Source of the DNA: Rhodococcus pseudokoreensis
GTDB lineage: Bacteria > Actinomycetota > Actinomycetes > Mycobacteriales > Mycobacteriaceae
Direction of reading: 5' to 3'
Assembly (NCBI RefSeq): GCF_017068395.1
Contig: NZ_CP070619.1
Location: 7,564,001-7,628,000 of the forward strand
Length of the DNA stretch: 64,000 nucleotides
Of the stretch, positions 35,947 to 52,025 are shown piece by piece. Both the position numbers and the translations under genes were made by a program. Position 1 is the first letter of the stretch. Each line of letters starts with the position of its first letter. Below the pieces are notes generated by a model. It was not told the origin of the DNA. It searched no databases and saw nothing but the letters and a program-made list of their open reading frames with translations.

Positions 35947-37434
35947 ATGAGCGTCGACTGCCCGCGGTTCACCCCGCCGAGGCCGCTGCACGAGGTGCTG
36001 CGCCGTCTCGGCCGGTCGGCGACTCTCTGCGGTCCGGGCGACGCCGCGGTGACGGGGATCAAGCAGGATTCGCGTCTCGTCCGGGACGGGGACGTGTACG
36101 CGGCGCTGCCGGGCCGGCACCGTCACGGGATCGAGTTCGTGGCCGAGGCCGCGTCGCGCGGTGCGGTCGCGATGCTCAGCGACCGGAAGTCGGATGTCCT
36201 GCCGACGATCGTGGTGGACGATCCGCGGCGGGTCCTCGGTCCGCTGGCGTCGTGGGTGTACGGCCATCCGTCCGAGGCGATCGACGTCTACGGGGTGACC
36301 GGGACGAACGGGAAGACCAGCACGGTGTACCTCCTGGACGCGGGACTGCGCGCGGCCGGAGCCACCGCAGGCATGATGACGGGAATCGCGGTCCGGGGGC
36401 CCGGCGGTTCACGGGCCGCGACCCGGACGACACCGGAGGCGTGCGAACTCCAGCAGACCCTCGCCGCGTTCGCCGAACAGCGGATCGGGGCGGTCGCGCT
36501 GGAGGTGTCGAGCCACGGTCTCGCGCTGCACCGGATCGACGGGACGTCCTTCCGGGTGGGTGTGTTCACCAATCTCGCCCGCGACCATCTGGACTTCCAC
36601 CCCGACATGGATGCGTACTTCGCGGCGAAGGCCAGATTGTTCGACCCCCGGCACTGCGCGGCGGCCGCCGTCGGCATCGACGACGAATTCGGACGCCGCC
36701 TCGCCGCCACCGTCACCGTGCCGCGGTTGACGTTCTCGTCGAGGACGACGGCGGCCGACATCCACGCGTCTCGTGTGCACGCGGACGAGGACGGCACGTC
36801 GTTCACGCTGCACGGCGCCGGCGACCGGAAATCGGTGCGGCTCCGGTTGCTCGGCGTGCACCAGGTGGACAACGCGCTCGCCGCGATCTCCGCCCTCGTC
36901 GTCCGGGGCGTGGACCTCGACGCCGCGATCGCGGGGATCGAGAACCTCGACACCATCCCGGGACGCCTGGAGGCCGTGGACGCGGGTCAGCCCTTCCTCG
37001 CCTTCGTCGACTACATGCACAACACCGCCGGGCAGCGACGCCTGTTTCCCTACCTCCGTTCACTGACCGGGGGCCGGGTCATCGCCGTCGTCGGGGCGAC
37101 GGGTGAGCGCGACCCGGGCAAGCGCGCCCCGCTCGGCGCGACGGCCGCCCGTTTCGCCGACACCGTTATCGTCACCGACGAGAGCCCGTACTCCGAGGAC
37201 GCGCAGCGCTTGCGGGAGGACGTCGCGCGCGGAGCGCGCAGCGGCGGCAACGCGGACGTGCTGGTGGTCCCCGACCGCGCCGAGGCGATCGCGGCGGCGG
37301 TCACCCTCGCCGCGCCGGGCGACGTCGTGGTCGTCGCCGGGCGTGGACACGACCGGCTCCAGGCGTACGGTCCGCGCCGGCGGGTGTTCGACGACCGGAT
37401 CGCGCTGCACGAGGCACTGCTCCGCCTGAGCTAG
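35947..37434 (+). CDS. MurE-like Mur ligase of uncertain substrate
   Basis: Three-domain Mur ligase of 495 residues (ATG at 35947; ATG at 35896 is also possible). The ATP loop is VTGTNGKTSTVYLLD; ARDHLDFHPDMDAYF and the C-terminal VGATGERDPGKRAPLG match the UDP-MurNAc-tripeptide ligase family. In mDAP-adding MurE the C-terminal specificity motif is D-N-P-R; here the equivalent segment reads TDESPYSED, so this is unlikely to be the housekeeping MurE, which would be expected in the dcw cluster elsewhere. The acceptor and amino acid are unknown. Its stop codon overlaps the stop of the convergent cysNC. Confidence 0.8.
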   Translation: MSVDCPRFTPPRPLHEVLRRLGRSATLCGPGDAAVTGIKQDSRLVRDGDVYAALPGRHRHGIEFVAEAASRGAVAMLSDRKSDVLPTIVVDDPRRVLGPLASWVYGHPSEAIDVYGVTGTNGKTSTVYLLDAGLRAAGATAGMMTGIAVRGPGGSRAATRTTPEACELQQTLAAFAEQRIGAVALEVSSHGLALHRIDGTSFRVGVFTNLARDHLDFHPDMDAYFAAKARLFDPRHCAAAAVGIDDEFGRRLAATVTVPRLTFSSRTTAADIHASRVHADEDGTSFTLHGAGDRKSVRLRLLGVHQVDNALAAISALVVRGVDLDAAIAGIENLDTIPGRLEAVDAGQPFLAFVDYMHNTAGQRRLFPYLRSLTGGRVIAVVGATGERDPGKRAPLGATAARFADTVIVTDESPYSEDAQRLREDVARGARSGGNADVLVVPDRAEAIAAAVTLAAPGDVVVVAGRGHDRLQAYGPRRRVFDDRIALHEALLRLS

Positions 37435-39314
37435 GCCTGCAACCCCTCGTGCCGGGCGAGTTCGGTGAGAATCCGGGCGACCAGGTCGTCGAGGTCGGCG
37501 CCGGTGGTGTCGAAGGCGAGGTCCGGGTTCTCCGGCGCCTCGTACGGGGCGTCGATCCCGGTGAGGCCGCGGAGTTCGCCCGCCCGCGCCCGGGCGTAGA
37601 GCCCCTTGGGGTCGCGCCGCTCGCACTCGTCGACCGGGGTGCTGACGTGAATCTCGAGGAACGGCAGGTCCGCGGCCTCGTTCAGGGCGCGGGCGATCGC
37701 CCGGTCCGAGCGGAGCGGCGACACCATCGACGCGATGGCGACCACCCCGGCGTCGGCGAACAACCGGGTGAGGTGACCGACGCGGCGGATGTTCTCGGCC
37801 CGGTCGCCGGGTGAGAACCCCAGGTCGTCCGAGATGCCGTGGCGGACATTGTCGCCGTCGAGAAGGTAAGCGGTCCGGCCTGCGTCGACGAGCGTCCGTT
37901 CGAGCGCGACCGCGACGGTCGACTTCCCGGACGCGGGCAGCCCGGTGAGCCAGATGGTGGCGCCCCGCTGCCCGGTCGCGGACCAGCGCCGGTCCCGCTT
38001 CAGCGACGACGGGTGCCACTTGATGTCGTGCCGGGTCTGCTCGCCGGGAACCACTTCCCGGGTGTCGCTGACCGTTCCGGCGCCGACGGTGTCGTTGCTC
38101 TGCTCGTCGATGAGGATGAACGCGCCGGCGTCGCGATTGGTGGCGTACGGGTCGGCGAGCACCACCGTGCTCGTCCGGAGCGTGATCCGGCCGATGTCGT
38201 TGAGGGCGAGTTCGCTGGGGGAGTCGTGTTCTTCGAGAGTTTCCGGGTCGAGCCGGGTGTGCAACTCCTGCACCGTGGCGCGCACGGTGCGGCTGGTGTG
38301 CTTGAGGGCCACCCGGTCGCCCGCCCGCAGCGGCGTCTCGCTCAGCCAGCACACGGTCGCGTCGATCTCGCGGGCCGGAACGGGTGCAGTGGCATTGGTC
38401 GCCGCACTGACGACGAGGTCGCCGCGGGCGACGTCGACGTCGTCGGCGAGTTCGAACGACACCGACAGCGGCGCGACCGCGACGGCCCGGTGCGGATCGA
38501 GGGTGTCGAGGGCGGTGACAGTGCTGCGGGAACCGGCAGGCAGAACCAGCACCTCGTCCCCGACGGACAGGGTGCCCGCCGACAGCCGGCCGGTGTAGCG
38601 GCGCCGCTGGTGGTCCGTGGGACGTGCTACCCACTGGATGGGGAGTCGCAGTTCGGATGCGACGGCCGACGGCGCGGCGAGTTCCACCGCTTCGAGGTAC
38701 GCGAGGAGCGTGGGCCCGGTGTACCAGGGTGTCGAATCCGACCGCGTGACCACGTTGTCTCCCCGGGTGGCGGACACCGGGATCACCGTGAGGTCGCGGC
38801 CGCCGAGGCGCTGCGCGAGCAGGCCGAGTTCGGATTCGACTTCCTTGAACCGGGTCTCGTCGAAGTCGACGAGGTCGATCTTGTTGACTACCGCGACCAG
38901 GTGCGGGACGCCGAGGAGGTCGGCGATCCGGGCGTGGCGCCGGGTCTGCCGGAGCACGCCGGTGCGCGCGTCCACCAGGAGCACGGCCACGTGGGTGTTC
39001 GACGCTCCGGTGAACATGTTGCGGGTGTACCGTTCGTGCCCCGGTGTGTCGGCGAGGACGAAGCTCCGGGTCGGCGTCGAGAAGAAGCGGTAGGCGACGT
39101 CGATGGTGATGCCCTGCTCGCGTTCGGCCCGCAGCCCGTCGGAGAGGGCGGCGAGATCCGCCTGGCCGTCGGCGTTCGTCACCGCCTCGAGGTGGTCGGT
39201 GGGCAGGCTTCCGGTGTCGTGGAGGAGGCGGCCGATGAGGGTGCTCTTCCCGTCGTCGACGCTGCCCGCGGTGGCGAGTCGCAGCAATTGGCGAGGCCGG
39301 CTTGTGGTGGTCAT
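37431..39314 (-). CDS. cysNC: Bifunctional sulfate adenylyltransferase subunit 1 / APS kinase
   Basis: Protein of 627 residues. The N-terminal 430 residues are the CysN GTPase: GSVDDGKSTLIGRLL (G1), DTPGHERYTRN (G3), NKIDLVDF (G4). From about residue 440 an APS kinase domain follows, with P-loop WLTGLPASGKSTVA and LDGDNVRHGISDDLGF. With CysD it converts sulfate to APS and then to PAPS. It is the last gene of stf0-cysD-cysNC, in which PAPS production is directly linked to a sulfotransferase. Resembles rhizobial NodQ in layout. Confidence 0.94.
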   Translation of the reverse strand: MTTTSRPRQLLRLATAGSVDDGKSTLIGRLLHDTGSLPTDHLEAVTNADGQADLAALSDGLRAEREQGITIDVAYRFFSTPTRSFVLADTPGHERYTRNMFTGASNTHVAVLLVDARTGVLRQTRRHARIADLLGVPHLVAVVNKIDLVDFDETRFKEVESELGLLAQRLGGRDLTVIPVSATRGDNVVTRSDSTPWYTGPTLLAYLEAVELAAPSAVASELRLPIQWVARPTDHQRRRYTGRLSAGTLSVGDEVLVLPAGSRSTVTALDTLDPHRAVAVAPLSVSFELADDVDVARGDLVVSAATNATAPVPAREIDATVCWLSETPLRAGDRVALKHTSRTVRATVQELHTRLDPETLEEHDSPSELALNDIGRITLRTSTVVLADPYATNRDAGAFILIDEQSNDTVGAGTVSDTREVVPGEQTRHDIKWHPSSLKRDRRWSATGQRGATIWLTGLPASGKSTVAVALERTLVDAGRTAYLLDGDNVRHGISDDLGFSPGDRAENIRRVGHLTRLFADAGVVAIASMVSPLRSDRAIARALNEAADLPFLEIHVSTPVDECERRDPKGLYARARAGELRGLTGIDAPYEAPENPDLAFDTTGADLDDLVARILTELARHEGLQA

Positions 39315-40243
39315 CAGAAGTACCCCTCGCGCTTGCGGTCTTCCATCGCGGCAACGGAAGTCCTGTCGTCGGCCCGGGTTTCTCCGCGTTCGGAGACCGT
39401 GGCCGCGGCGATCTCCTCGATCACACCGGCGACGTCGTCGGCGTCCGAACGTACGGCGCCGGTGATGGTGAGGTCCCCGACGGTGCGATACCGCACCCGG
39501 AGCCGTTGCACCAGTTCGCTTTCGGTGGGCAGCGTGTACTCGGACAGTCCGAGCAGGATGCCGTCGCGTTCGAACACCTGCCGTTCGTGGGCGAAGTAGA
39601 TCGACGGCAGCGCGAGCTTTTCGAGTTCGACGTAGCGCCAGATGTCGAGTTCGGTCCAGTTGCTGAGCGGGAACACCCGGACCTGCTCGCCGCGGCGGAT
39701 CCGCCCGTTGTACAGCGACCACGGCTCGGGGCGCTGCGAACGCGGATCCCACTGCCCGAACTCGTCGCGGAAGCTGAGCACCCGCTCCTTCGCGCGGGCG
39801 CGTTCCTCGTCCCGGCGCGCGCCACCGAAGGCGGCGTCGAAGCGATGCTCCTCCAGGGCGTCGAGCAGGGTCCGGGTCTGCAACCGGTTCCGCGACGTGC
39901 CGGGACCACCCGTTTCGGTGACGCGGCCCTTGTCGATCGACTCCTGCACCGACGCGACGATCAGCCGGTGACCGTCCTCGGCGAGCCTGTGATCGCGGAA
40001 GTCGATCACCTCGGGGAAGTTGTGCCCGGTGTCGACGTGCAGGACGGGAAACGGCAACGGGGACGGCCGGAACGCCTTCTCCGCCAGCCGCAGCAGCACG
40101 ATCGAGTCCTTGCCTGCCGAGAACAGCAGCACCGGTCGCTCGAGTTCCGCGACCACCTCGCGGATGATGTGCACGGCCTCCGCCTCCAGCGCGCGGAGTT
40201 CGTCGACGTGTGCGTCCGTGTCGGCGTGCGGTGCGGCGGTCAC
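39314..40243 (-). CDS. cysD: Sulfate adenylyltransferase subunit 2 (copy linked to stf0)
   Basis: CysD of 309 residues, the nucleotide-binding subunit of ATP sulfurylase. The PP-loop is VLLFSAGKDSIVLLRLAEKA, and GGARRDEERARAKERV and FPLSNWTELDIWRYVE are family signatures; it ends AMEDRKREGYF. GTG at 40243 overlaps the stf0 stop and the stop overlaps the cysNC start (ATGA), so all three are coupled. A second cysD lies at 50338-51291 with the assimilatory genes. Confidence 0.95.
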   Translation of the reverse strand: MTAAPHADTDAHVDELRALEAEAVHIIREVVAELERPVLLFSAGKDSIVLLRLAEKAFRPSPLPFPVLHVDTGHNFPEVIDFRDHRLAEDGHRLIVASVQESIDKGRVTETGGPGTSRNRLQTRTLLDALEEHRFDAAFGGARRDEERARAKERVLSFRDEFGQWDPRSQRPEPWSLYNGRIRRGEQVRVFPLSNWTELDIWRYVELEKLALPSIYFAHERQVFERDGILLGLSEYTLPTESELVQRLRVRYRTVGDLTITGAVRSDADDVAGVIEEIAAATVSERGETRADDRTSVAAMEDRKREGYF

Positions 40244-41043
40244 AGCGGAAGTCCGTTCGCGGCGGCCTCGGACCGGTAGCGCTCGACCCACTCCTTGGAG
40301 CGGCCGTCGCTCTGACGTTTCAGCGGCGGCGGGGGCGCGAGATCGGCGTCGAGGCCGAGTTCGACGAGCACCTTCGCCGCCGTCGCCTGCGGGGCCGCGA
40401 CGAGATCGTCGAAGCTGATGTCGATGTGGTCGAGATCCTCCGTCTCGAACCAGTTGCGCCACTGTACATCCTGATCGCGGAGGATGCGGACGAGGTGGGC
40501 GATGCCGTCCGCGTGATATTCGGCGCCGTCGTGCGGCGCGGGCGGCGTGGCGTCGTCGCGCCAGACCTGGGTCTGCACCGCCCGCCACATCGACACCGCC
40601 TGCGCGACGACGTCACGCCGGAAGACGTGGATGAGGACGAGGTCGCGGTCCAGGATGTCGTCCAGCGCGGACCGCAGGTCGTCGCCGGAGCGGTCCGGGA
40701 GCCCGGCGGCGCGGTCGAGGACGAGCGGCACCTGGTTCCACATCAGTTTGCCGCCCCACACGCCGTTGGGGGTGCGTCCGAGGTTGAGCAGTTGATCGCG
40801 CCACTGCTCCGCGGTGCGGGTGTCGGCGGTTCCCGGTTCGAGTGGGGCGAGCAGGGAGAGCACCGTCTCGTCGGTGACCGACTCGAACCACTGCCGTGGC
40901 TGCGGTGACCGGCTGGTGGACGGCAGGTATTGGAAGAACTCCTCCGGGTTCCCGGCCACGGTCGTGGCACGGAGGGATTCGACGAGCAGCGTGCTGCCAC
41001 TGCGCTGCGACGCGCAGACGAGATATGAGCGTGGCTCCGACAT
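40240..41043 (-). CDS. Stf0-family sulfotransferase (trehalose 2-sulfotransferase type)
   Basis: Sulfotransferase of 267 residues, the same length as M. tuberculosis Stf0 as I recall it. The PAPS 5'-phosphosulfate loop is seen in VCASQRSGSTLLVESLR, and HVFRRDVVAQAVSMWRA carries the 3'-phosphate-binding part. Stf0 transfers sulfate to the 2-position of trehalose, the first step of mycobacterial sulfolipid. The gene heads an operon with PAPS-producing cysD and cysNC. The acceptor here is inferred; a polyketide synthase for a sulfolipid is not in the window. Translation appears to be leaderless. Confidence 0.88.
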   Translation of the reverse strand: MSEPRSYLVCASQRSGSTLLVESLRATTVAGNPEEFFQYLPSTSRSPQPRQWFESVTDETVLSLLAPLEPGTADTRTAEQWRDQLLNLGRTPNGVWGGKLMWNQVPLVLDRAAGLPDRSGDDLRSALDDILDRDLVLIHVFRRDVVAQAVSMWRAVQTQVWRDDATPPAPHDGAEYHADGIAHLVRILRDQDVQWRNWFETEDLDHIDISFDDLVAAPQATAAKVLVELGLDADLAPPPPLKRQSDGRSKEWVERYRSEAAANGLPL

Positions 41044-42143: not shown

Positions 42144-42381
42144 GGGGGTGCTCCTCACCTCCATTCCAGTTTGATCCAGGACGGCGGCGACGCGCCAGAG
42201 GTAAATCGGCAGGCGGCCGATCCCGGTGCGATCGACGTGGTCCCCGGGAATACTCGGGGCACCGGCGAGCGAAGACTAACCGAAGGGGCGACGGACCACA
42301 CGGCGAAGCGGACGAGCGGCACGGACGGGGACGAGGAGACTCTCCCGGGTCACCTGGGCTTTGCTCCCGTTTCCGTGGTGG

Positions 42382-42409
42382 TGAACCGGAGGCGCGGGTG
42401 AACCGTGTG
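42382..42409 (+). promoter_or_regulatory. SigL-type ECF promoter of the sigma factor operon
   Basis: TGAACC (42382-42387) is followed after 16 bases by CGTGTG (42404-42409), matching the mycobacterial SigL consensus TGAACC-N16/17-CGT. It lies 22 bp upstream of the sigma gene start, which also has GGGAGG as RBS, so the sigma factor probably drives its own transcription. A copy with the same spacing occurs at 43792-43819. Confidence 0.72.
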
Positions 42410-42431
42410 TACTGCTGGGAGGTGGTGACCG

Positions 42432-42938
42432 ATGCCGGATGCCCAGACGGAGCTCATGCACGCCCTGTACGAGGAACATGCCCCCGCCGTGTGGCGGTAT
42501 GCCCTCCGGCTGACCGGCGACCGCGCCCGCGCCGAGGACATCGTGCAGGAAGTGCTGCTGCGCGCCTGGAAGCACCCGAACGTGCTCGACCAGTCGGAGT
42601 CTTCGGCTCGGGCGTGGTTGTTCACGGTCGCCAGGAACCTCGTGTTCGACGAGCACCGCAGTGCCCGCTCGCAGCGTGAGGTCGGGATGAGTTCGACACC
42701 CGAACGGGCCGCCCCGGACGGTTCGGACGGCGCACTCGACGCCTGGATGATGGGGGATGCGCTGGCCCGGGTCAGCGCCGACCACCGCGCGGTCCTGGTG
42801 CTCGGCTACTACCGGGGGATGTCGACCCACCAGATCGCCGACGAACTCGGGATACCGGAGGGAACGGTGAAATCCCGCATGCATTACGGATTGCGGGCGC
42901 TTCGATTGGCTCTGCAGGAAATGGGGGTGACCCGATGA
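42432..42938 (+). CDS. sigL: ECF RNA polymerase sigma factor, SigL type
   Basis: ECF sigma factor of 168 residues. Region 2 (YEEHAPAVWRYALRLTGDRARAED with IVQEVLLRAWKHP) recognises the -10 element, and region 4 (YYRGMSTHQIADELGIPEGT) recognises the -35. It resembles M. tuberculosis SigL. The next gene is a zinc-finger anti-sigma factor overlapping by ATGA, as expected for SigL/RslA. The gene symbol is by similarity of sequence, operon partner and promoter motif. Confidence 0.85.
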   Translation: MPDAQTELMHALYEEHAPAVWRYALRLTGDRARAEDIVQEVLLRAWKHPNVLDQSESSARAWLFTVARNLVFDEHRSARSQREVGMSSTPERAAPDGSDGALDAWMMGDALARVSADHRAVLVLGYYRGMSTHQIADELGIPEGTVKSRMHYGLRALRLALQEMGVTR

Positions 42939-43690
42939 CGCTCGACGACTTCGAGTCCCACGAGGATCCCTACGTCCGCTGGGACGCCGCCTACGTGCTC
43001 GGTGCCATGTCGGCCGCCGATCGGCGCGAGTACGAGGCCCACCTCGCTCACTGCGCACAGTGCTCGCAGGCCGTGTCCGAGTTGGCGGGCATGCCCGGAC
43101 TGCTGGCTCTGATCACACCGGAAGAGGCGTTCGGGACCCTGACGGACGGTGCGCCCGAGGTCGAGGAGATGCCCGCACCGCGTGTGCTGACCGGGCTGGT
43201 GGGAACGGTGCAGCGGCGCCGACGTCAGCGGCGGGCCGCGGTGGCCCTCGCTGCGGCGGCAGCCGTGATCGCCGTGGCCGTCCCCGTCGCGGTGCTGGCG
43301 ACCCAGGACCGGACCCCGGCCGCCCCCGTCACGGCCCTGCCCGCCCCGGACCGTGCGAACACCGCCGAGGCGGTGTTCGCACCCGTGGTTCCGACGACGA
43401 TCACCGCGAGCGCGTCCGTCGTGTCGACGTCCTGGGGCACGGTGATCTTCGTCGAGTGCTCGTACGCGGACACGTGGCCCGGCGACGGACGCTACGGCGC
43501 CGCCACCGAGGGGTACGCGCTGACCGTGACCGATCGTTCCGGGGTGGTCACCACCGTGGCCACCTGGACGGGGGAAGCCGGGCAGACGGTGCGGCCCACA
43601 GCCACCACCAGCCTGCCCCTCGACGCGATCGCGAGCATCGACGTGCGATCCGACGACGACCATCAGGTATTGCTGACCACGGCGTTGTGA
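42935..43690 (+). CDS. rslA: Zinc-binding anti-sigma factor, RslA type, membrane-anchored
   Basis: Protein of 251 residues. The N-terminal anti-sigma domain holds H36-x3-C40-x2-C43 (HLAHCAQC), the zinc site that senses oxidation in RslA. One transmembrane helix lies at about residues 90-110 (VALAAAAAVIAVAVPVAVL), followed by an outer domain of about 140 residues that may sense a surface signal. Release of the sigma factor would follow loss of zinc or proteolysis. Confidence 0.85.
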   Translation: MTLDDFESHEDPYVRWDAAYVLGAMSAADRREYEAHLAHCAQCSQAVSELAGMPGLLALITPEEAFGTLTDGAPEVEEMPAPRVLTGLVGTVQRRRRQRRAAVALAAAAAVIAVAVPVAVLATQDRTPAAPVTALPAPDRANTAEAVFAPVVPTTITASASVVSTSWGTVIFVECSYADTWPGDGRYGAATEGYALTVTDRSGVVTTVATWTGEAGQTVRPTATTSLPLDAIASIDVRSDDDHQVLLTTAL

Positions 43691-43697
43691 ACGGGAC

Positions 43698-43730
43698 GCA
43701 GGGAGTCGGCCCGGTTTCCGTACTCCCTGC
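43698..43730 (+). terminator. Hairpin terminator after the sigma/anti-sigma operon
   Basis: GCAGGGAGT (43698-43706) and ACTCCCTGC (43722-43730) form a perfect 9-bp stem with a 15-nt loop, just after the anti-sigma stop codon. No U-tract follows. It separates this operon from the next promoter at 43792. Confidence 0.55.
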
Positions 43731-43791
43731 AGGCAGGGCCGCCGTGTCTCGATCGTCACGACCGTTTTGCGGAAAAATGTTCTGCCACCGG

Positions 43792-43819
43792 TGAACCCGG
43801 CCGGTCCGTGGTTCGTGTG
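43792..43819 (+). promoter_or_regulatory. SigL-type ECF promoter of the four-gene cluster
   Basis: TGAACC (43792-43797), 16 bases, then CGTGTG (43814-43819). With the flanks, both copies in the window share GGTGAACC-N16-CGTGTGTA. It lies 58 bp before the start of the TPP-enzyme gene, after the terminator of the sigma operon, and strongly suggests that the adjacent sigma factor controls the cluster. Confidence 0.72.
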
Positions 43820-43877
43820 TATATCCAGTGGGTGATCACAGGTCGCCCCATCCGATCCACGACACGGGGGTCTGCCG

Positions 43878-45590
43878 ATGAATCTCACGCATCACGAGCC
43901 ACGGAAAACCGGTCGGAGCATGCGCGTCGCCGACTACATCGTCGCGGCGCTGGCGGCCGAGGGCGTCGAGCACGTCTTCGGTGTGGGGGGCGCGAACATC
44001 GAGGACCTGTACGACGCGCTGCACCGCTCCCCGGACGTCGAGGGTGTCGTCGCCAAACACGAGTTCTCGGCGACGACCATGGCCGACGGATATGCCAGAA
44101 CTTCGAACCGGACAGGGGTGGTCGCGGCGACGTCGGGCGGTGGTGCGCTCAATGTGATCGCCGGGCTCGGTGAGGCATTCGCGTCCCGGGTGCCGCTGCT
44201 GGCGTTGATCGGGCAACCGCCGACGTCGCTCGAAGGGTCGGGCGCGTTCCAGGACACGAGTGGACTGGCGGGGTCGATCGATGCGTCCCGGTTGTTCGGC
44301 GAGGTGTCGCTGTACTGTGCGCGCGTCGAATCGCCGCTCGACCTCGACCGCCAACTGGCCGAGGCGCTCGCGGCGGCGCGCCGCGGGGGACCGGCAGTAC
44401 TGCTGCTGCCGAAGGACATTCAGCGGGCGATCGGCGAGTTCCCGGAACCGCACCGAACGGACTCGGCCGCACAGCGCGTTTCCACCACGGACGTCACGCG
44501 GCTTGCCGAGGCCCTGCGCGACGACTACGGCCGTATCACCGTCATCGCAGGCGACGAGGTCGCGCGGGCGGGCGCGCGAGAGGAACTCGCGGAATTCGCG
44601 CACGTGCTCGGAGCGCGGGTTGCCGTCACACCCGACGCGAAGGATGTGCTCGACCCGGCGGCGCCGGGACAACTCGGGATCACCGGCGCGATGGGAAACC
44701 CGGATGTGATCGACGCACTGCAGGATTGCGACCTCTGCCTGCTCGTCGGCACTCGACTACCGGTGATGGCGCGGGGAGGGCTCGACACCGTGCTGGAGAA
44801 GACGCTGGTGTACAGCGTCGGGTCGGCGACGCCGTACGTGCAGGCTCAGCACGTCCCGACCCGGGATCTGCGGGCGACGCTCCGTGGGCTCGTTGCCGAC
44901 ATCGGGCCCGCCGCAACACCGGTACCCGTCGCGCACAGCGATCCGACTCCGATCGACGTACCTCGATCGGACACGTCGGGCCTGCACTACACGGACGCGG
45001 TGAGGGCGCTCGCCGCAGCGCTGCCCGACGGCGCCGACGTGTTCGCGGACGCCGGGAACACGGGCGCCGCTGTGGTGCATCACCTTCCGGTCGCGAGCGG
45101 AGGGCGGTTCGTGGTCGCGCTGGGAATGGGCGGGATGGGCTACACCTTCGGCGCCGCGATCGGTTCCGCGTTCTCCCGGGGCCGCCGCACGTTCGTGATC
45201 GCGGGCGACGGCGCGTTCTACGCGCACGGACTCGAGATCCACACGGCCGTCGAGTACGGCGTGCCGGTCACGTTCGTCGTGTTCAACAACAACGCCCACG
45301 CGATGTGCCTCACGCGCGAACAGGTGTATTTCGAGGGCACGTACACCTACAGCCGGTTCCGTCCCGCCCGCATCGGGGCCGGAGTCGGCGCACTGTTCCC
45401 CGGGCTGCCGTCCCACACGGTCGACACCCACGCCGATCTGGCCCACGCACTGCGGTCCACGGCGGAGTCGACAGGACCCGCCGTCATCGAGGTCGTCTGC
45501 GACGCCGACGAACTACCGCCGTTCCTGCCGTTCCTGACGGCACCCGTTCCAGTCGAGAAATCCGAATCCCGAGAAGGAGCACGCCGATGA
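43878..45590 (+). CDS. Thiamine-pyrophosphate-dependent enzyme, acetolactate-synthase-like
   Basis: TPP enzyme of 570 residues with the usual Pyr, central and PP domains. Catalytic Glu62 lies in VAKHEFSATTMADGYAR; the TPP/Mg site runs from GDGAFYAHGLEIHTA to FVVFNNN. It probably decarboxylates a 2-oxo acid and either releases an aldehyde or makes an acyloin. It lacks a nearby small subunit, so it is not the branched-chain acetolactate synthase. First gene of a four-gene operon with an SRPBCC protein, a KASIII-like enzyme and an aminotransferase. Confidence 0.85.
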   Translation: MNLTHHEPRKTGRSMRVADYIVAALAAEGVEHVFGVGGANIEDLYDALHRSPDVEGVVAKHEFSATTMADGYARTSNRTGVVAATSGGGALNVIAGLGEAFASRVPLLALIGQPPTSLEGSGAFQDTSGLAGSIDASRLFGEVSLYCARVESPLDLDRQLAEALAAARRGGPAVLLLPKDIQRAIGEFPEPHRTDSAAQRVSTTDVTRLAEALRDDYGRITVIAGDEVARAGAREELAEFAHVLGARVAVTPDAKDVLDPAAPGQLGITGAMGNPDVIDALQDCDLCLLVGTRLPVMARGGLDTVLEKTLVYSVGSATPYVQAQHVPTRDLRATLRGLVADIGPAATPVPVAHSDPTPIDVPRSDTSGLHYTDAVRALAAALPDGADVFADAGNTGAAVVHHLPVASGGRFVVALGMGGMGYTFGAAIGSAFSRGRRTFVIAGDGAFYAHGLEIHTAVEYGVPVTFVVFNNNAHAMCLTREQVYFEGTYTYSRFRPARIGAGVGALFPGLPSHTVDTHADLAHALRSTAESTGPAVIEVVCDADELPPFLPFLTAPVPVEKSESREGARR

Positions 45591-46246
45591 CTGCCCACGA
45601 GATCGCACCGCTTCCCGACCTTCCCGCCGGCCTGCCCGGCCTCGTCCGCATCGAGACCTCCGACCGTCACGCCACGACACCGATCATCATGGACATGCTG
45701 AGGTCGGTGTACCCGCACGACCAGGTGTTCGGAAAGTACTGCACTGTCCAGGATTACATCGACTGCCCGCCGGACGAGGTGTTCCGCTACCTCTCGCACA
45801 CCCGGAGCCTCGAGGAATGGACGTACAGCCTGCGGGGATTCACCCCCGCGGGAGAACCCGGGCTGTGGCTTGCGTACGACCGCCTGGGCGACACGACCGA
45901 GATCTACGCGCGCACCGTGGCGCACCCCGCCGCGATGACCGTCGACTATCACTGCGCCTGGGACCAGGGGAAACACCTGTGGATGGTGTACCTGATGCGG
46001 GTGGTGGACGCGCGCACGGTCCTGGACGTCGACGGATCCGTCGTGCTGTGGACCAACTGCCACCACCCGTTCTACGACGAGAATCCCTACCCCGAGACCG
46101 CTCCCGCCGACCGGGTTCCGTGGGTGGGTGACTTCTGGGAGATGTTCTCCGCCGGACACCAGCTCGAGATGAGCAATCTCAAGGCGATCTGCGAATACCG
46201 ATGGGCGAACGACCTGCCCGTGACCCCGACCTGGATGAGTGAGTGA
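45587..46246 (+). CDS. SRPBCC-superfamily protein (cyclase/lipid-binding fold)
   Basis: Protein of 219 residues whose centre fits a START/SRPBCC ligand-binding fold: YIDCPPDEVFRYLSHTRSLE is the typical first helix-grip pattern, followed by beta strands and an end helix (FSAGHQLEMSNLKAICEYR). Such proteins cyclise or bind hydrophobic intermediates. The conserved-looking DYHCAWDQGKHLW and TNCHHPFYDENPYPET with several His, Cys and acidic residues could bind a metal. ATG overlaps the preceding stop, and AAGGAGC serves as RBS. Confidence 0.75.
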   Translation: MTAHEIAPLPDLPAGLPGLVRIETSDRHATTPIIMDMLRSVYPHDQVFGKYCTVQDYIDCPPDEVFRYLSHTRSLEEWTYSLRGFTPAGEPGLWLAYDRLGDTTEIYARTVAHPAAMTVDYHCAWDQGKHLWMVYLMRVVDARTVLDVDGSVVLWTNCHHPFYDENPYPETAPADRVPWVGDFWEMFSAGHQLEMSNLKAICEYRWANDLPVTPTWMSE

Positions 46247-46249
46247 GAC

Positions 46250-47272
46250 ATGGACACCGTCAGCCTGATCGACATCGCCGGCTACCTGCCCGAGAACCGG
46301 GTGGGAGCAGACTATTTCGCCCGATTCGCCGACTCCGATCGGCTCGCCGCGAACATCATGTTCCGGGCGCCGAAATTCCGCCACCACATCGCGAGCGACG
46401 AGAACGCCGTCGACATGGCCGAACGCGCAGTCGCCCCGCTGATCGAACGGAACGGCTCCGAACTCGTCTCCAACGTGGACGTCCTCATCACCCACACCCA
46501 GCTGCCGGACGTCCCGGTCCTGGGCACCGGCGGAGAACTCGCGCGCCGGCTGGGGATCACCCCGGACTGGGTGGTGGACCTGCACAACGGGGGCTGCGCG
46601 TCGTTCGTGTACATGATCAAGCTGGCACGCCAGATCATGCAGACCAGTGACGCGTCCACTGCCCTGATCGTGTCGGTGCAGAACAGTGCAGGCCAGATCT
46701 TCACGCAGTCGGACGTGCGCGTGCTGGCGCAGTCGGCGGTGCCGGGTGACGGCGCGGGCGCGTGCCTGCTGATGAAATCCGAGGCCGCGCCGGTGCTCGG
46801 GCTCGAGTGCCGGACCTACCCCGAGTTCGCCGGGGACATGACAGCCGCCGTCGATCCGCCGCGCAAATACTGGGAGGCGGGAACCGGCCAATTGCACATC
46901 GGGTTCACCGAAACGAAGATCGCGAAGGTGTTCGCCCGCGGGAACCGGCTGGTCCCCGAGGTGGCGCTCGCGGTGTGCAAGCAGATCGGCATCACCCCGG
47001 ACGAGATCGACACCCTGGTCACCAACCAGCCCAACCGGCTGTTCCTCCGCAACTGGCGGGACGCACTCGAGCTTCCGCCGGAACGACACCCCGACACGTT
47101 CGACGAATGCGGGAACCTGTTCGGCGCCGCGATTCCCGTCACCCTCGACCTCGAGAACCGGGCGGGCCGGATCCCCAACGGTTCGCTGGTGATGATGTCC
47201 GCCTTCGCGCACGCGGGCGACTTCGCCGGGGCCGGGGCCGTCCGGTGGGGCGCCGCCCCGGTGGGGGTGTGA
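46250..47272 (+). CDS. KASIII-like ketoacyl synthase/acyltransferase with altered active site
   Basis: Thiolase-fold protein of 340 residues. The nucleophile is Cys116 in HNGGCASFVYM. FabH enzymes have a His in the H-Q-A-N segment and a later Asn; here the segment reads T-N-Q-P-N (Asn259 in place of His), while the second Asn (Asn289 in CGNLFGAA) is kept. Loss of the His argues against ordinary decarboxylative condensation and for an acyl transfer or a special condensation. Third gene of the cluster, 3 bp after the SRPBCC gene. Confidence 0.82.
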   Translation: MDTVSLIDIAGYLPENRVGADYFARFADSDRLAANIMFRAPKFRHHIASDENAVDMAERAVAPLIERNGSELVSNVDVLITHTQLPDVPVLGTGGELARRLGITPDWVVDLHNGGCASFVYMIKLARQIMQTSDASTALIVSVQNSAGQIFTQSDVRVLAQSAVPGDGAGACLLMKSEAAPVLGLECRTYPEFAGDMTAAVDPPRKYWEAGTGQLHIGFTETKIAKVFARGNRLVPEVALAVCKQIGITPDEIDTLVTNQPNRLFLRNWRDALELPPERHPDTFDECGNLFGAAIPVTLDLENRAGRIPNGSLVMMSAFAHAGDFAGAGAVRWGAAPVGV

Positions 47273-47273
47273 G

Positions 47274-48323
47274 ATGACCGCGCCGACCCTTGCCGGCCCC
47301 GGCGTGAGATTCGATCTCGCGCTGAGCGAGAACCCCTTCGCCCCGCTGCCTTCCGTGCTCGCCGCGCTCGACGGTGTCATGCGTCAGGCGCATCGGTACC
47401 CGGAGTTCCTGCCCGACCGGCTGGTCGGGGTCATCGCCGATCACGAAGGGCTCGAACCCGATCAGGTGGTGGTGGGCGAGGGTGCCACCGGTGTCGCCCT
47501 GCAGATCATGCGCTCCGTCGCCGGGCCGGGGGAGCGGATCGTGTTCACCGCCCCGACGTTCGACGGGTACCCGATCCTCGCGAGGATCGCGGCCCTGGGT
47601 GCGGTGCCGGTACCGATCCTCGCGGACGGCGGGCAGGATCTGACGGCGATGGCGGCCGCGATCGACGACCGCACCCGGCTCGTCGTCGTGTGCCGCCCGC
47701 ACAACCCCACCGGAACCCTCGTCGACGCCGCCGAACTGGCGGACTTCCTCCGCCGGGTGCCGGAGCGGGTGGTCGTCGTTCTCGACGAGGCGTATGTGGA
47801 GTTCGTCGACCGCCGACTGGCTCTGGACGCGCACCGCATCGTCGCCGAACATCCGAACGTCGTGTTCCTGCGCACGTTCTCCAAGGCGTACGGGCTGGCC
47901 GGGTTGCGGATCGGATTCGGCTTCGCGAATGCGGCTCTGGCCCGGAGGATTCGAACGCTGCAACTGCCGTTCGGGATGGGCAGCGTCGCCGTTCCCGCGG
48001 TCACGGCGTCGTACGCCGCCGACCACGAACTCCGCGTCCGGGTGGCCGCCATCGTCGCCGAACGCGAGGAACTGTGGCGCACGTTGCGGGCGGCGGGAAT
48101 GCCGGTCCCGCGCAGTCACGCCAACTTCCTCTACCTACCGGGCGCGGGCGTCGGCGGCGCACTCGCCCGTGCCGGCATCCACGCGCGGACGTATCCCAGT
48201 GGTGACGTGCGGATCGCGGTCGGGAACCCGGACGCCGGGCGTGCGGTGATCGACGCGCTCAGGCCGACAGTGCGCGGTACCGCCGCAGTTCCGCGTGCGA
48301 CTGCGAGTAGCGGTCGAGCATGA
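47274..48323 (+). CDS. HisC-like PLP-dependent aminotransferase
   Basis: Class I/II aminotransferase of 349 residues. PLP-binding features are CRPHNPTGT, VVLDEAYVEF and the Schiff-base lysine in RTFSKAYGLAGLRIGF. It is like histidinol-phosphate aminotransferase, but the cluster context argues for another substrate, such as a ketone or oxo acid made by the TPP and KASIII-like enzymes. Its last 65 bases overlap the convergent chelatase gene; the corresponding Ala/Arg/Ser tail is not conserved-looking. Confidence 0.85.
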   Translation: MTAPTLAGPGVRFDLALSENPFAPLPSVLAALDGVMRQAHRYPEFLPDRLVGVIADHEGLEPDQVVVGEGATGVALQIMRSVAGPGERIVFTAPTFDGYPILARIAALGAVPVPILADGGQDLTAMAAAIDDRTRLVVVCRPHNPTGTLVDAAELADFLRRVPERVVVVLDEAYVEFVDRRLALDAHRIVAEHPNVVFLRTFSKAYGLAGLRIGFGFANAALARRIRTLQLPFGMGSVAVPAVTASYAADHELRVRVAAIVAEREELWRTLRAAGMPVPRSHANFLYLPGAGVGGALARAGIHARTYPSGDVRIAVGNPDAGRAVIDALRPTVRGTAAVPRATASSGRA

Positions 48324-49014
48324 CGTCGAGCAGCCGGGTGTGCGGTCCGATGGTGGCCGCGTAGGTGATGCCGGGTCCGCAGGATTCCGCGGCGCGGCTC
48401 AACCGGTCCGTGAGCAGTCCGGGAGCGAGGAACCACGGTGCGATCACGATGCGCTCGGCGCCGCCGTGTCGCAGCGTCGAAATGGACTGCTGCACCGTCG
48501 GTTCCGCCGCGGTGGCGAAGCACGTGACCGCGCCCGACCATCGGGTGCCCGCGACGACCGCCCCGGCCAGGGCGCGCGTGCGGTCGTTGGCTGCCGGGTC
48601 GGAAGAGCCGACCGCGGCGAGGACGATTCCGAGTCCGGACTCGTCGCCGGTACCGACGGCTTCGCCGATCCGGTCCCGGACCGCCTCGACCAGCCGGGCA
48701 TCGTGCCCGAGAACGTCGGCCTGCCGGACGTGCAGGTGGGGATGACGGAGGCGGGCGGCGTCCAGGAGCGCCGGAAGGTCGACGCGGGCGTGGAACGCGC
48801 TGCCCAGCAGCATCGGCACCACCACGGCGGACGAATGTCCCTCGGCGGCGACCGTGTCGATCACCTGGTCCACGGACGGCGCGTTGAGGTCGAGGAAGCA
48901 CAACCGGACGTCGAGGTCCGGGCGCCGCTCCCGAAGCGCCGACACGGCAGCCGCCACCACCCGCGCACTGCGGGGGTCGCGACTGCCGTGAGCGACAGCG
49001 ATCAGCGGAGTCAT
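48259..49014 (-). CDS. CbiX-type sirohydrochlorin chelatase
   Basis: Chelatase-like protein of 251 residues, duplicated CbiX fold. The first half begins PLIAVAHGSRDPRSA with the metal-binding histidine; the second half has IVIAPWFLAPGLLTDRL. It probably inserts iron into sirohydrochlorin to make siroheme for the adjacent sulfite reductase. In M. tuberculosis the equivalent gene (Rv2393) follows cysH. ATG at 49014 is 5 bp from the cysN stop, in the same direction. Confidence 0.88.
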   Translation of the reverse strand: MTPLIAVAHGSRDPRSARVVAAAVSALRERRPDLDVRLCFLDLNAPSVDQVIDTVAAEGHSSAVVVPMLLGSAFHARVDLPALLDAARLRHPHLHVRQADVLGHDARLVEAVRDRIGEAVGTGDESGLGIVLAAVGSSDPAANDRTRALAGAVVAGTRWSGAVTCFATAAEPTVQQSISTLRHGGAERIVIAPWFLAPGLLTDRLSRAAESCGPGITYAATIGPHTRLLDVMLDRYSQSHAELRRYRALSA

Positions 49015-49018
49015 CGCA

Positions 49019-50335
49019 TTAGACGCGCTCGCCGAGCTCCACCGCTGCGATGGCATCCCCGACGAGGCCGGCTGCGAGCGTGTTGCCGCCGGCCGGATCG
49101 ATCAGCAGGAAGCTGCCGGTGTGGCGGTTCACGGTGTAGTCGTCGGCGACGATCGGCTCGGCGACACGCACCGAGATCTTGCCGATCTCGTTGAGCTCCA
49201 GCGACTCCGGGCTCGGCTCCGACGTGAGCTCCTGCTCGTTGAAACGCTCGACGAGCGTGCCCACGATGGCCTGCGTGGTGCGGGTGCCGTGCTTGAGTAG
49301 CAGGCGGGCACCGGGACGCAGCGGCTTCTCGGCCAGCCAGCAGACGGTCGCGTCGAACTCGCCGAGCGGCTCCGGGGCGTCGGAGGGAGAGGCGATGACG
49401 TCACCGCGGGAGACGTCGACGTCGTCGGCGAGCACGAGAGTGACGCTGCGGCCTGCGTGGGCGCTGTCGAGTTCGCCGTCCGCCGTGTCGATGCGGGTGA
49501 CCGTGGTGCGGACACCCGACGGCAGGATCACGACCTCGTCGCCCGGCGTCACCTCACCGGCGGCGACCTGTCCGGCGTACCCGCGGTAGTCGGGGAACTC
49601 GGCGGTCCGCGGACGGATCACGTACTGGACGGGGAAACGGAGACCGACCCGGTGGGGTTCGGCGTCGACCGGCACCGACTCGAGGTGCTCGATGAGCGTG
49701 GGGCCGTCGTAGTACGGGGTGTTCTCCGAACGCACCGCGACGTTGTCGCCGTGCAGGGCCGACACCGGGATCTCGACGACGTCCTCGGACGCCCAGCCGA
49801 GAGAACTGGTCAGCGAGTTGAACTCCGCCGAAATGGTCGCGAACACGGTGGCCGGGTCCTCGACGAGGTCGATCTTGTTGACGGCCAGCACAAGCTTCGG
49901 GACGCCGAGCAGCGCGAGAACGGCGGCGTGCTTGCGCGTCTGCGAGATGACACCCTTGCGGGCGTCGACCAGCAGGATCACCATCTGCGCGGTGGACGCA
50001 CCCGACACCGTGTTCCGGGTGTACTGCACGTGCCCGGGAGTGTCGGCGAGGACGAACGAGCGGCGCGGCGTCGCGAAGTACCGGTACGCCACGTCGATCG
50101 TGATGCCCTGTTCGCGCTCCGCGCGCAGGCCGTCGACCAGCAGCGACAGGTCGGGGGTGGACAGGCCCTTGTCCACCGACGCCCGGGTGACGGCGTCGAT
50201 CTGATCGGCGAGAACCGATTTCGTGTCGTACAGCAGACGGCCGACGAGGGTCGACTTGCCGTCGTCCACACTGCCGGCGGTGGCAAGCCGAAGTAACTGC
50301 GTGCTTCGCGGGCTGTGCACGTGGAGGTCGCTCAT
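49019..50335 (-). CDS. cysN: Sulfate adenylyltransferase subunit 1, assimilatory copy
   Basis: CysN GTPase of 438 residues without a kinase domain. Motifs are GSVDDGKSTLVGRLLYD (G1), DTPGHVQYTRN (G3) and NKIDLVED (G4). With CysD it makes APS, which the neighbouring CysH reduces directly. It ends just after the elongation-factor-like domains, where the cysNC copy at 37431 continues into APS kinase. It starts 2 bp after the cysD stop. Confidence 0.95.
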   Translation of the reverse strand: MSDLHVHSPRSTQLLRLATAGSVDDGKSTLVGRLLYDTKSVLADQIDAVTRASVDKGLSTPDLSLLVDGLRAEREQGITIDVAYRYFATPRRSFVLADTPGHVQYTRNTVSGASTAQMVILLVDARKGVISQTRKHAAVLALLGVPKLVLAVNKIDLVEDPATVFATISAEFNSLTSSLGWASEDVVEIPVSALHGDNVAVRSENTPYYDGPTLIEHLESVPVDAEPHRVGLRFPVQYVIRPRTAEFPDYRGYAGQVAAGEVTPGDEVVILPSGVRTTVTRIDTADGELDSAHAGRSVTLVLADDVDVSRGDVIASPSDAPEPLGEFDATVCWLAEKPLRPGARLLLKHGTRTTQAIVGTLVERFNEQELTSEPSPESLELNEIGKISVRVAEPIVADDYTVNRHTGSFLLIDPAGGNTLAAGLVGDAIAAVELGERV

Positions 50336-50337
50336 GA

Positions 50338-51291
50338 TCAGAAATAGCCCTCTCGCTTGCGGTCTTCCATGGCCGCTTCGGATACTCGGTCGTCGCCACG
50401 GGTCGCGCCGCGCTCGGTCAGCCGGGACGCTGCGACCTCGGCGAGGATCGCCTCGTTGTCGCCGGCCTCGGAAAGAACTGCGCCGGTGGTGGACCCGTCG
50501 CCGACGGTGCGGTACCGCACCGACAGCGTCTGCAGGTCTTCGCCCTCGGACGGTCCGCCCCACACGCCGGGCGTCATCCACATGCCGTCGCGCTGGTACA
50601 CCTCGCGCTGGTGCGCGTAGTAGATGCTGGCCAGTTCGACGTTGTCGCGGGCGATGTACCGCCAGATGTCGAGTTCGGTGAAGTTGCTGAGCGGGAAGAC
50701 GCGGACCTGCTCGCCGGGGGAGTGCTTGCCGTTGTACAGGTTCCACAGTTCGGGGCGCTGCTTCTTCGGATCCCACTGGCCGAATGCGTTGCGCAGCGAG
50801 AAGATCCGCTCCTTGGCGCGGGCCCGCTCCTCGTCGCGGCGAGCGCCACCGAAGACCGCGTCGAACCGGTTCTCGGAGATCGCGTCGAGGAGGGGAACCG
50901 TCTGCAGCGGGTTCCGGATCCCGTCGGGACGCTCGGTGAGACGGCCGTCGGCCAGGTAGTCCTCGACCTTCGCCACGTGCAGGCGCAGGTTGTACTTGGC
51001 CACGACGTGGTCGCGGAAGTCGAGGACTTCCTGCAGGTTGTGGCCCGTGTCGACGTGCAGCAGCGCGAACGGCAGCGGCGCAGGCCAGAACGCCTTGATC
51101 GCCAGGTGCAGCAGCACCGTGGAGTCCTTGCCGCCGGAGAACAGGATCACGGGGCGTTCGAATTCGCCCGCGACCTCGCGGAAGATGTGGATCGCTTCCG
51201 ACTCGAGTGCGTCGAGCGTGTCGAACTGCGTTCCGTCCAACTGCGGCCGGGCGGCGGCTTCTGCGAGGGAAGTGGAGATGTCGATGGTCAT
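50338..51291 (-). CDS. cysD: Sulfate adenylyltransferase subunit 2, assimilatory copy
   Basis: CysD of 317 residues: PP-loop VILFSGGKDSTVLLHLAIKA, then GGARRDEERARAKERI and FPLSNFTELDIWRYIA, ending AMEDRKREGYF. ATG at 51291 overlaps the cysH stop. Compared with the copy at 39314 it has a longer insert near GVWGGPSEGED. Confidence 0.96.
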   Translation of the reverse strand: MTIDISTSLAEAAARPQLDGTQFDTLDALESEAIHIFREVAGEFERPVILFSGGKDSTVLLHLAIKAFWPAPLPFALLHVDTGHNLQEVLDFRDHVVAKYNLRLHVAKVEDYLADGRLTERPDGIRNPLQTVPLLDAISENRFDAVFGGARRDEERARAKERIFSLRNAFGQWDPKKQRPELWNLYNGKHSPGEQVRVFPLSNFTELDIWRYIARDNVELASIYYAHQREVYQRDGMWMTPGVWGGPSEGEDLQTLSVRYRTVGDGSTTGAVLSEAGDNEAILAEVAASRLTERGATRGDDRVSEAAMEDRKREGYF

Positions 51292-52025
51292 GAGGCGTGC
51301 AACCCGCATTCTGTCTTGGCCTGACCGGCCCAGCGGCCGCTGCGCGGATCGCTGCCGGGGGCTGGCTTGCTGGTGCACGGAGCGCACCCGATGGACGGAT
51401 AGCCCTCGTCGACGAGAGGATTCACCAGAATCGAGTGCTCGTCGATGTAGGACTGCATGTCTTCGTCGGACCACGCGGCGATCGGATTGATCTTCACCAG
51501 ACCGAACGCGTCGTCGAACGAGATCAGGGGGGCGTTGGCGCGGGTGGGGGCCTCGACGCGGCGGATGCCGGTGACCCACGCCTTGTAGCCGGCGAGCGTC
51601 TTCTTCAGCGGGGCGACCTTCCGCAGTGCGCAGCACCGGTTGGGTTCACGGGCGAACAGATCCTTGCCCTCCGCCGCGTCCTGCTCGGCGACGCTGGCCT
51701 CTGCCCGCGCGTTGATCACGTTGACGCCGTACACCTGCTCGACGGCGTCACGGGTGCCGATGGTCTCCGCGAAGTGGTAGCCGGTGTCGAGGAACAGCAC
51801 GTCCACGCCGGGATGAATCTGGGCGGCGAGGTGAACGAGAACACCGTCCTGCATGTTCGACGCGACGATGTAGCTATTGCGATACCCCGTCGCTTCGCTC
51901 GCCCCGGCCCCGAACGTGTCTTCCGTCCACTGCAGCAATTCCCGCGCGGAGGCCCCTTCGAGACTTGCCGCCCCCTGCGCGGCAAGGAGCCGGAGGTCCT
52001 CCTGTGTGGCTGTGGCGAGATTCAA
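51288..52025 (-). CDS. cysH: Adenylylsulfate (APS) reductase
   Basis: CysH of 245 residues that reduces APS to sulfite with thioredoxin. The 4Fe-4S cysteines NRCCALRK and GCAPCTSKP mark the APS-reducing type rather than the PAPS type, and the C-terminal ECGLH holds the catalytic cysteine. I chose TTG at 52025, which overlaps the sirA stop (TTGA) and has AAGGAGA before it; a GTG at 52058 would add an Arg-rich stretch inside sirA. Confidence 0.93.
   Translation of the reverse strand: MNLATATQEDLRLLAAQGAASLEGASARELLQWTEDTFGAGASEATGYRNSYIVASNMQDGVLVHLAAQIHPGVDVLFLDTGYHFAETIGTRDAVEQVYGVNVINARAEASVAEQDAAEGKDLFAREPNRCCALRKVAPLKKTLAGYKAWVTGIRRVEAPTRANAPLISFDDAFGLVKINPIAAWSDEDMQSYIDEHSILVNPLVDEGYPSIGCAPCTSKPAPGSDPRSGRWAGQAKTECGLHAS

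What the first reader, a model, noticed from the sequence alone, without database searches (positions are those of the whole stretch)
42382..43819. Twin ECF promoters link a SigL-like factor to itself and to a neighbouring gene cluster
GGTGAACC-N16-CGTGTGTA occurs at 42382 (before the sigma gene) and at 43792 (before the TPP enzyme operon), sharing 16 fixed bases and the same spacer length. The motif matches the known SigL consensus. I saw no third copy when reading the window. This suggests a small, zinc/redox-gated regulon: the sigma operon and the four enzymes at 43878-48323.
Basis: partly seen in the sequence, partly recalled or inferred. Interest (0 to 1): 0.85.

Follow-up and report, generated by a model that had tools for sequence, protein, structure and literature searches.

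The report
SigL-controlled carbazole-type metabolite operon
In this soil bacterium a stress-type genetic switch (SigL and its zinc-motif partner) carries the same promoter as a neighbouring four-gene set related to enzymes that build antioxidant carbazole compounds, and the same pairing recurs in related bacteria including many mycobacteria, which suggests an original job for a poorly understood regulator.

Summary
The twin promoters are real (42380-42411 and 43790-43821; reader 2 bases off). The strict motif occurs twice in the 9.87-Mb genome, both here, and nine of 28 same-genus genomes carry both copies. The sigma factor is a SigL, its partner RslA-like. The four 'TPP enzyme' genes are homologues of the carbazole-forming core of Streptomyces: ThDP enzyme, CqsB2-type cyclase, KASIII-like enzyme, aminotransferase. 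In 80 named loci (the closest of 480), a SigL-type motif lies within 200 bp upstream of the ThDP gene in 71 of 79 testable cases against 12 of 1104 control ORFs; sigL lies in 69 of the 80 stretches. In Mycobacterium, the SigL orthologue lies within 15 kb of the cyclase in 70 of 79 genomes where both places were printed; other loci read show an empty site or fragments, and the published M. tuberculosis gene order matches the empty state (PMC13002591, passages). Best reading: an ancestral SigL target making a carbazole-type redox-active aromatic. Product and redox gating are inferred; the KASIII catalytic His is Asn in this clade and one RslA zinc ligand is not conserved.

The parts
42380..42411 (+). 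SigL-type promoter of the sigma operon: -35 GGTGAACC 42380-42387, N16, -10 CGTGTGTA 42404-42411
42432..42938 (+). sigL-like ECF sigma factor gene, 168 aa
   Evidence: NF007227 262.4 bits, cut-off 202; PDB 6dv9 M. tuberculosis SigL E 1.6e-63; only over-cut-off match in the genome
42935..43690 (+). rslA-like anti-sigma gene, 251 aa, HxxxCxxC motif (His36, Cys40, Cys43); overlaps the sigL stop by 4 bases
   Evidence: zf-HC2; PDB 3hug_B RslA E 8.2e-19
43790..43821 (+). SigL-type promoter of the enzyme operon: -35 GGTGAACC 43790-43797, N16, -10 CGTGTGTA 43814-43821
43878..45590 (+). ThDP-dependent enzyme gene, 570 aa (CqsB3/NzsH-type role inferred)
   Evidence: TPP_enzyme N, M and C domains; homologue beside a CqsB2-like gene in L227, 36% identity
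45587..46246 (+). CqsB2-type cyclase gene (SRPBCC), 219 aa; overlaps the ThDP stop by 4 bases
   Evidence: PDB 6ipv CqsB2 E 4.6e-48; catalytic positions conserved, one Glu to Asp; model finds 6ipv first
46250..47272 (+). KASIII-like gene, 340 aa, catalytic His replaced by Asn
   Evidence: ACP_syn_III domains; alignment
47274..48323 (+). HisC-like PLP aminotransferase gene, 349 aa (CqsB7-type role inferred)
   Evidence: Aminotran_1_2; best NCBIfam model NF002878 330.6 bits, below its cut-off of 374

Best explanation
A SigL/RslA module autoregulates and directly transcribes an adjacent four-gene carbazole-type biosynthetic operon. Proposed working: RslA holds SigL; on oxidation or zinc loss SigL is freed and starts transcription at both GGTGAACC-N16-CGTGTG promoters. 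The aminotransferase makes an aryl-pyruvate (most likely indole-3-pyruvate), the ThDP enzyme couples it to pyruvate, the KASIII-like enzyme adds an acyl group drawn from primary fatty-acid metabolism, and the CqsB2-type cyclase closes and aromatises a ring, giving an ortho-quinone or catechol carbazole-type compound with radical-scavenging chemistry. The pairing is ancestral in several Mycobacteriales genera; in mycobacteria the cassette sits in the sigL locus itself and has been lost in part of the species. Shown by sequence: gene identities, promoter conservation, linkage, empty sites and fragments. Inferred: transcription, signal, substrate and product.
For: Strict motif only at these two sites in the genome, conserved at the locus in 9 of 28 same-genus genomes as a pair. 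TGAAC-N16-18-CGT within 200 bp upstream of the ThDP gene in 71 of 79 and of sigL in 51 of 69 named loci, against 12 of 1104 other ORFs. sigL in 69 of 80 named stretches. Of 20 stretches from further genera the 4 with sigL have the motif before the ThDP gene, the 16 without sigL do not (one weaker variant 205 bases upstream in L232). SigL-cyclase distance under 15 kb in 70 of 79 mycobacterial genomes with both places printed. A divergent ABC exporter gene carries the motif in 15 of 15 named loci that have it. CqsB2 match and catalytic positions. Zinc motif of the partner.
Against: No expression data. The Rhodococcus -10 differs from the revised M. tuberculosis SigL consensus at its last three positions. 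KASIII catalytic His is Asn in 18 of 18 loci of the clade aligned, unlike the closer CqsB-type cluster L227. One of four RslA zinc ligands is not conserved. No dedicated ACP or prenyltransferase is seen in the four-gene operon. 8 of 79 named ThDP genes lack the motif, 3 of them with sigL present (L078 with a one-base -10 change, L132, L144); 5 have the motif with no sigL in the stretch. In G014 sigL, rslA and the aminotransferase gene are absent from the locus while motif and other enzymes remain.
Confidence: 0.62

Rival explanations
1. The operon is a SigL target, but the product is not a carbazole: the enzymes act on phenylpyruvate or 4-hydroxyphenylpyruvate, or the Asn-variant KASIII does a different acyl transfer, giving a naphthalene-like or open-chain aromatic.
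For: KASIII His to Asn in 18 of 18 aligned loci; only 27-41% identity to the L227 enzymes; no dedicated ACP; the aminotransferase resembles general aromatic/histidinol-phosphate transaminases.
Against: The cyclase keeps all five proposed catalytic positions, and aminotransferase, ThDP enzyme and KASIII-like enzyme are the types used in the published pathway.
Confidence: 0.25
2. The enzyme operon is read by another ECF factor, or by several, and the shared motif reflects overlapping promoter preferences rather than SigL control.
For: G014 keeps motif and three enzyme genes without any sigL-like gene at E 1e-15; a second ECF factor of G000 scores 177.8 bits, under the cut-off; 5 named loci have the motif with no sigL in the stretch.
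Against: The motif is also the sigma gene's own promoter and tracks sigL: 66 loci with both, 5 with neither, and the same split in further genera.
Confidence: 0.08
3. The two motifs are chance matches in a GC-rich genome.
For: The short core TGAACC-N15-17-CGTGTG is no more frequent than its reversed control (4 against 5).
Against: Strict motif 2 against 0; position-conserved in other genera, 71 of 79 against 12 of 1104.
Confidence: 0.02

Closest known systems
Mycobacterium tuberculosis SigL-RslA
   Same: Sigma and zinc-motif anti-sigma pair, adjacent genes, motif before the sigma gene; best PDB matches 6dv9 and 3hug.
   Different: Published M. tuberculosis order has rv0737 immediately downstream of sigL-rslA (PMC13002591, passages), so the cassette is not between them; RslA His25 ligand is Asp here; the -10 differs in its last three positions.
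Carquinostatin/neocarazostatin carbazole core (CqsB7, CqsB3, CqsB1, CqsB2; NzsH, NzsI, NzsJ)
   Same: Same four enzyme types; CqsB2 match E 4.6e-48 with catalytic positions conserved.
   Different: KASIII His to Asn; no dedicated ACP, second KASIII or prenyltransferase in the operon; SigL promoter. The review's list of bacteria with such clusters (S. cattleya, Sorangium, Scytonema) names no Rhodococcus, Nocardia or Mycobacterium.
SigL-free relatives of the cassette (stretches L228-L239, L243-L245; plasmid copies such as NZ_CP021356.1)
   Same: ThDP gene, cyclase and KASIII in the same order, in most with the aminotransferase; six plasmid records hold the cyclase.
   Different: No sigL hit and no motif within 200 bp of the ThDP gene in those stretches. 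Of the plasmid copies only the one in L073 was looked at.

Membership tests
SigL ECF sigma factor | Score over the curated family cut-off | tested here: met
   262.4 bits against 202
SigL ECF sigma factor | SigL-type -35/-10 before its own gene | tested here: met
   42380-42411; last three -10 positions differ from the revised M. tuberculosis consensus
SigL ECF sigma factor | Transcribes from that promoter | not testable with these tools
   no expression data
RslA-type zinc anti-sigma factor | HxxxCxxC motif | tested here: met
   His36, Cys40, Cys43 aligned to His50, Cys54, Cys57
RslA-type zinc anti-sigma factor | Fourth zinc ligand His25 | tested here: not met
   aligns with Asp11; a His lies two residues earlier
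RslA-type zinc anti-sigma factor | Releases sigma on oxidation | not testable with these tools
   published for M. tuberculosis RslA only (PMC2877774, passages)
Carbazole biosynthetic core (CqsB/Nzs type) | CqsB2-type cyclase with conserved catalytic positions | tested here: met
   E 4.6e-48; Y135, Y163, D98 (Glu in CqsB2), H191, E194 invariant in 27 sequences
Carbazole biosynthetic core (CqsB/Nzs type) | ThDP enzyme, KASIII-like enzyme and aminotransferase beside the cyclase | tested here: met
Carbazole biosynthetic core (CqsB/Nzs type) | KASIII-like enzyme with Cys-His-Asn | tested here: not met
   Cys-Asn-Asn in 18 of 18 aligned loci; His in L227; the role of that His is recalled from FabH
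Carbazole biosynthetic core (CqsB/Nzs type) | Product is a carbazole | not testable with these tools
   needs chemistry; so filed as carbazole-type, not as a carbazole cluster

The most novel reading that the evidence does not exclude
SigL-RslA, known from M. tuberculosis as a regulator without a clear purpose, began as the dedicated switch of a redox-active carbazole-type metabolite operon in Mycobacteriales. Rhodococcus, Nocardia and many mycobacteria keep the switch with its operon, some with a SigL-driven exporter, while M. tuberculosis and other species keep the switch after losing the operon.
Probability: 0.55. Interest if true: 0.87.

Novelty: new variant of a known kind. Interest (0 to 1): 0.74.

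Why it matters
It gives a concrete candidate purpose for SigL, predicts an undescribed aromatic metabolite family in Rhodococcus, Nocardia and many mycobacteria, and offers a harmless laboratory host in which signal, promoter and product can be tested. It would also explain the SigL locus of M. tuberculosis as a regulator left behind after its target was lost.

Tried and rejected
Genome-wide search with 2 mismatches was too noisy to name further targets. The extra divergent motif beside a cupredoxin-like lipoprotein gene in R. jostii (L077) was not counted as a third promoter, since its -10 lies almost on the start codon. A match between the SigL residue at M. tuberculosis position 54 and the fourth -10 base was seen (A at the ThDP promoter in 27 of 31 loci with Arg, in 4 of 46 loci with His and a motif; 5 further His loci had no motif). 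The structure model adds fold-level support only (TM-score 0.66, rmsd 13.8). Paper searches gave nothing useful; led to PMC2877774 and PMC6372665.

Limits of the counts. The 80 named loci are those nearest the query among 480, so they lean to this clade. Unnamed stretches can repeat named ones: L244 has the contig length of L122, and L252 that of L126. The 24 stretches were picked by hand, mostly top SigL matches, and are no sample. In one search only printed places could be used (149 SigL genomes, 143 cyclase genomes, 79 in both). In some searches the lists of places were cut.

Papers. PMC7466098: parts 1-3 of 5 of the text. PMC2877774, PMC6372665, PMC13002591, PMC10100901: found passages only. 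All others: search listings. That no held paper joins SigL with such a cassette rests, which cover open-licence PMC papers only. Recalled, from no call: the TGAACC -35 of SigL, FabH catalytic residues, and the guess that the host belongs to the R. opacus group.

Full report
Observation. The two promoter-like elements are as described apart from a 2-base offset: GGTGAACC-N16-CGTGTGTA at 42380-42411 and 43790-43821. The strict form occurs only at these two places in the 9.87-Mb genome, with none for the reversed control. The short core alone is not enriched (4 sites, 5 control sites), so the case rests on the longer motif and on conservation. Of 28 same-genus genomes 11 have a close KASIII orthologue (87% identity or more); nine of these carry both strict motifs at the locus, G007 and G014 one each. 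In G007 the ThDP promoter has one changed -10 base.

Regulator. The sigma factor scores 262.4 bits against the NF007227 cut-off of 202, its best PDB match is M. tuberculosis SigL, and it is the only over-cut-off match in the genome. The partner matches RslA (E 8.2e-19) with His36, Cys40 and Cys43 on zinc positions; the fourth ligand, His25 of M. tuberculosis RslA, aligns with Asp11. For M. tuberculosis RslA, disulfide formation, zinc release and an 8-fold loss of affinity for SigL are published (PMC2877774, passages). Gating of the Rhodococcus protein is an inference.

Enzymes. The second gene has no Pfam or NCBIfam match at E 0.001 but matches the carbazole synthase CqsB2 of Streptomyces exfoliatus (E 4.6e-48). 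Five residues proposed for CqsB2 catalysis (PMC7466098) fall on Y135, Y163, D98, H191 and E194, invariant in the 27 aligned sequences; one is Glu to Asp. An AlphaFold model (mean pLDDT 80.5) finds 6ipv first (E 7.4e-18), with a global TM-score of only 0.66. The other genes are a ThDP enzyme, a KASIII-like enzyme and a HisC-like aminotransferase, the types that act before the cyclase in the published pathway. A difference matters: the KASIII catalytic His of that cluster is Asn in 18 of 18 aligned loci of the window's clade. The product may thus be carbazole-like rather than a known carbazole.

Distribution and promoters. The cyclase family has 1036 matches in the protein collection (best 120 seen) and occurs in 150 of 401 genomes of the family searched. 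A scan of named genomes gave 480 confirmed relatives among 494 matches; the best 80 were kept. sigL-like genes lie in 69 of these 80 stretches. TGAAC-N16-18-CGT lies within 200 bp upstream of the ThDP gene in 71 of 79 testable loci, of sigL in 51 of 69, and of 12 of 1104 other ORFs of the same loci. By locus: motif with sigL 66; motif without sigL in the stretch 5; no motif with sigL 3; neither 5; one not testable. In two of the three exceptions (L132, L144) the anti-sigma gene ends about 40 bases before the ThDP match, so read-through is possible. Twenty further stretches split alike: the four with sigL (L240, L241, L242, L246) have the motif before the ThDP gene; the other sixteen have no sigL hit and no motif within 200 bp, with a weaker variant 205 bases upstream in L232.

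Mycobacteria. Among 396 Mycobacterium-genus genomes, 293 have SigL at E 1e-70 or better and 262 the cyclase at E 1e-60 or better. Of the 79 genomes whose two places were both printed, 70 have them within 15 kb, 51 at 2-3 kb and 19 at about 9 kb; of the nine others four have them on different contigs and five far apart on one contig. Reading 24 hand-picked stretches with marker genes shows one locus in several states: mapA-sigL-rslA-cassette-MarR, mostly followed by mmsB (7); the same with a flavin monooxygenase, a DUF4389 protein and an FtsX-type ABC exporter inserted (6); an empty state mapA-sigL-rslA-MarR-mmsB (L253, L258, L260, L265, L266, L267); fragments only (L254, L255, L256, L261; those of L256 weak); and one stretch (L259) with a cassette away from sigL, from the same genome as the empty site L260. 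In M. tuberculosis rv0737, a MarR gene, is immediately downstream of sigL-rslA (PMC13002591, passages), which corresponds to the empty state. I did not read the M. tuberculosis genome; the likeness of the MarR gene to Rv0737 rests on position and family. Where the exporter gene is present in the named loci, 15 of 15 carry the SigL-type motif 34 nt before its first aligned codon.

A natural deletion. In G014 (L068) no sigL, rslA or aminotransferase match is found at the locus, traces resembling the sigL end are visible between promoter and ThDP gene, the strict motif lies 320 bases upstream of the ThDP gene, and no sigL-like gene is found elsewhere in that genome at E 1e-15. Whether the operon is expressed there is unknown; it is a case against exclusive SigL control.

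Conclusion. Co-regulation is strongly supported by comparative evidence, with no expression data. The operon is best seen as a carbazole-type cassette under SigL, an old arrangement in Mycobacteriales that includes mycobacterial SigL. Signal, substrate and product are inferences. Carbazole quinones of actinomycetes are described as potential antioxidants (PMC7466098), which would fit a redox-released sigma factor, but that fit is an argument, not a test.

Noticed in passing
37060-41043 and 48259-52058: The sigma operon and cassette lie between two sulfur-assimilation blocks (cysN/cysD-like frames on both sides, a trehalose 2-sulfotransferase-like Stf0 gene, a CbiX-type chelatase gene), all on the - strand; cysN-like copies on the two sides are about 52-53% identical.
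   Followed up: partly
L077:7738-8136 (- strand): In R. jostii-type loci a cupredoxin-like lipoprotein frame lies divergent from the ThDP gene, with a weak SigL-like motif close to its start codon.
   Followed up: partly
L083:2599-8179: In some mycobacterial loci a flavin monooxygenase, a DUF4389 protein and an FtsX-type ABC exporter stand between rslA and the cassette; the exporter carries its own SigL-type motif (15 of 15 named loci).
   Followed up: yes
L080:4789-8152: In Nocardia brasiliensis an ABC-2/DrrA-like exporter and an MspA-type porin gene lie between rslA and the cassette.
   Followed up: no
L072, L073 and plasmid NZ_CP021356.1: Second cassette copies without sigL; in L073 the KASIII match is split into two overlapping pieces.
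   Followed up: partly
43769-43789 and about 42351-42362: Conserved blocks upstream of the -35 in Rhodococcus: GGAAAAATGTTCTGCCACC before the ThDP promoter and CACCTGGGnTTT before the sigma promoter; purpose unknown.
   Followed up: no
G000:C6:5367894-5368391 (L159): A second ECF factor scores 177.8 bits against NF007227, below the cut-off of 202; it could overlap SigL in promoter choice.
   Followed up: no
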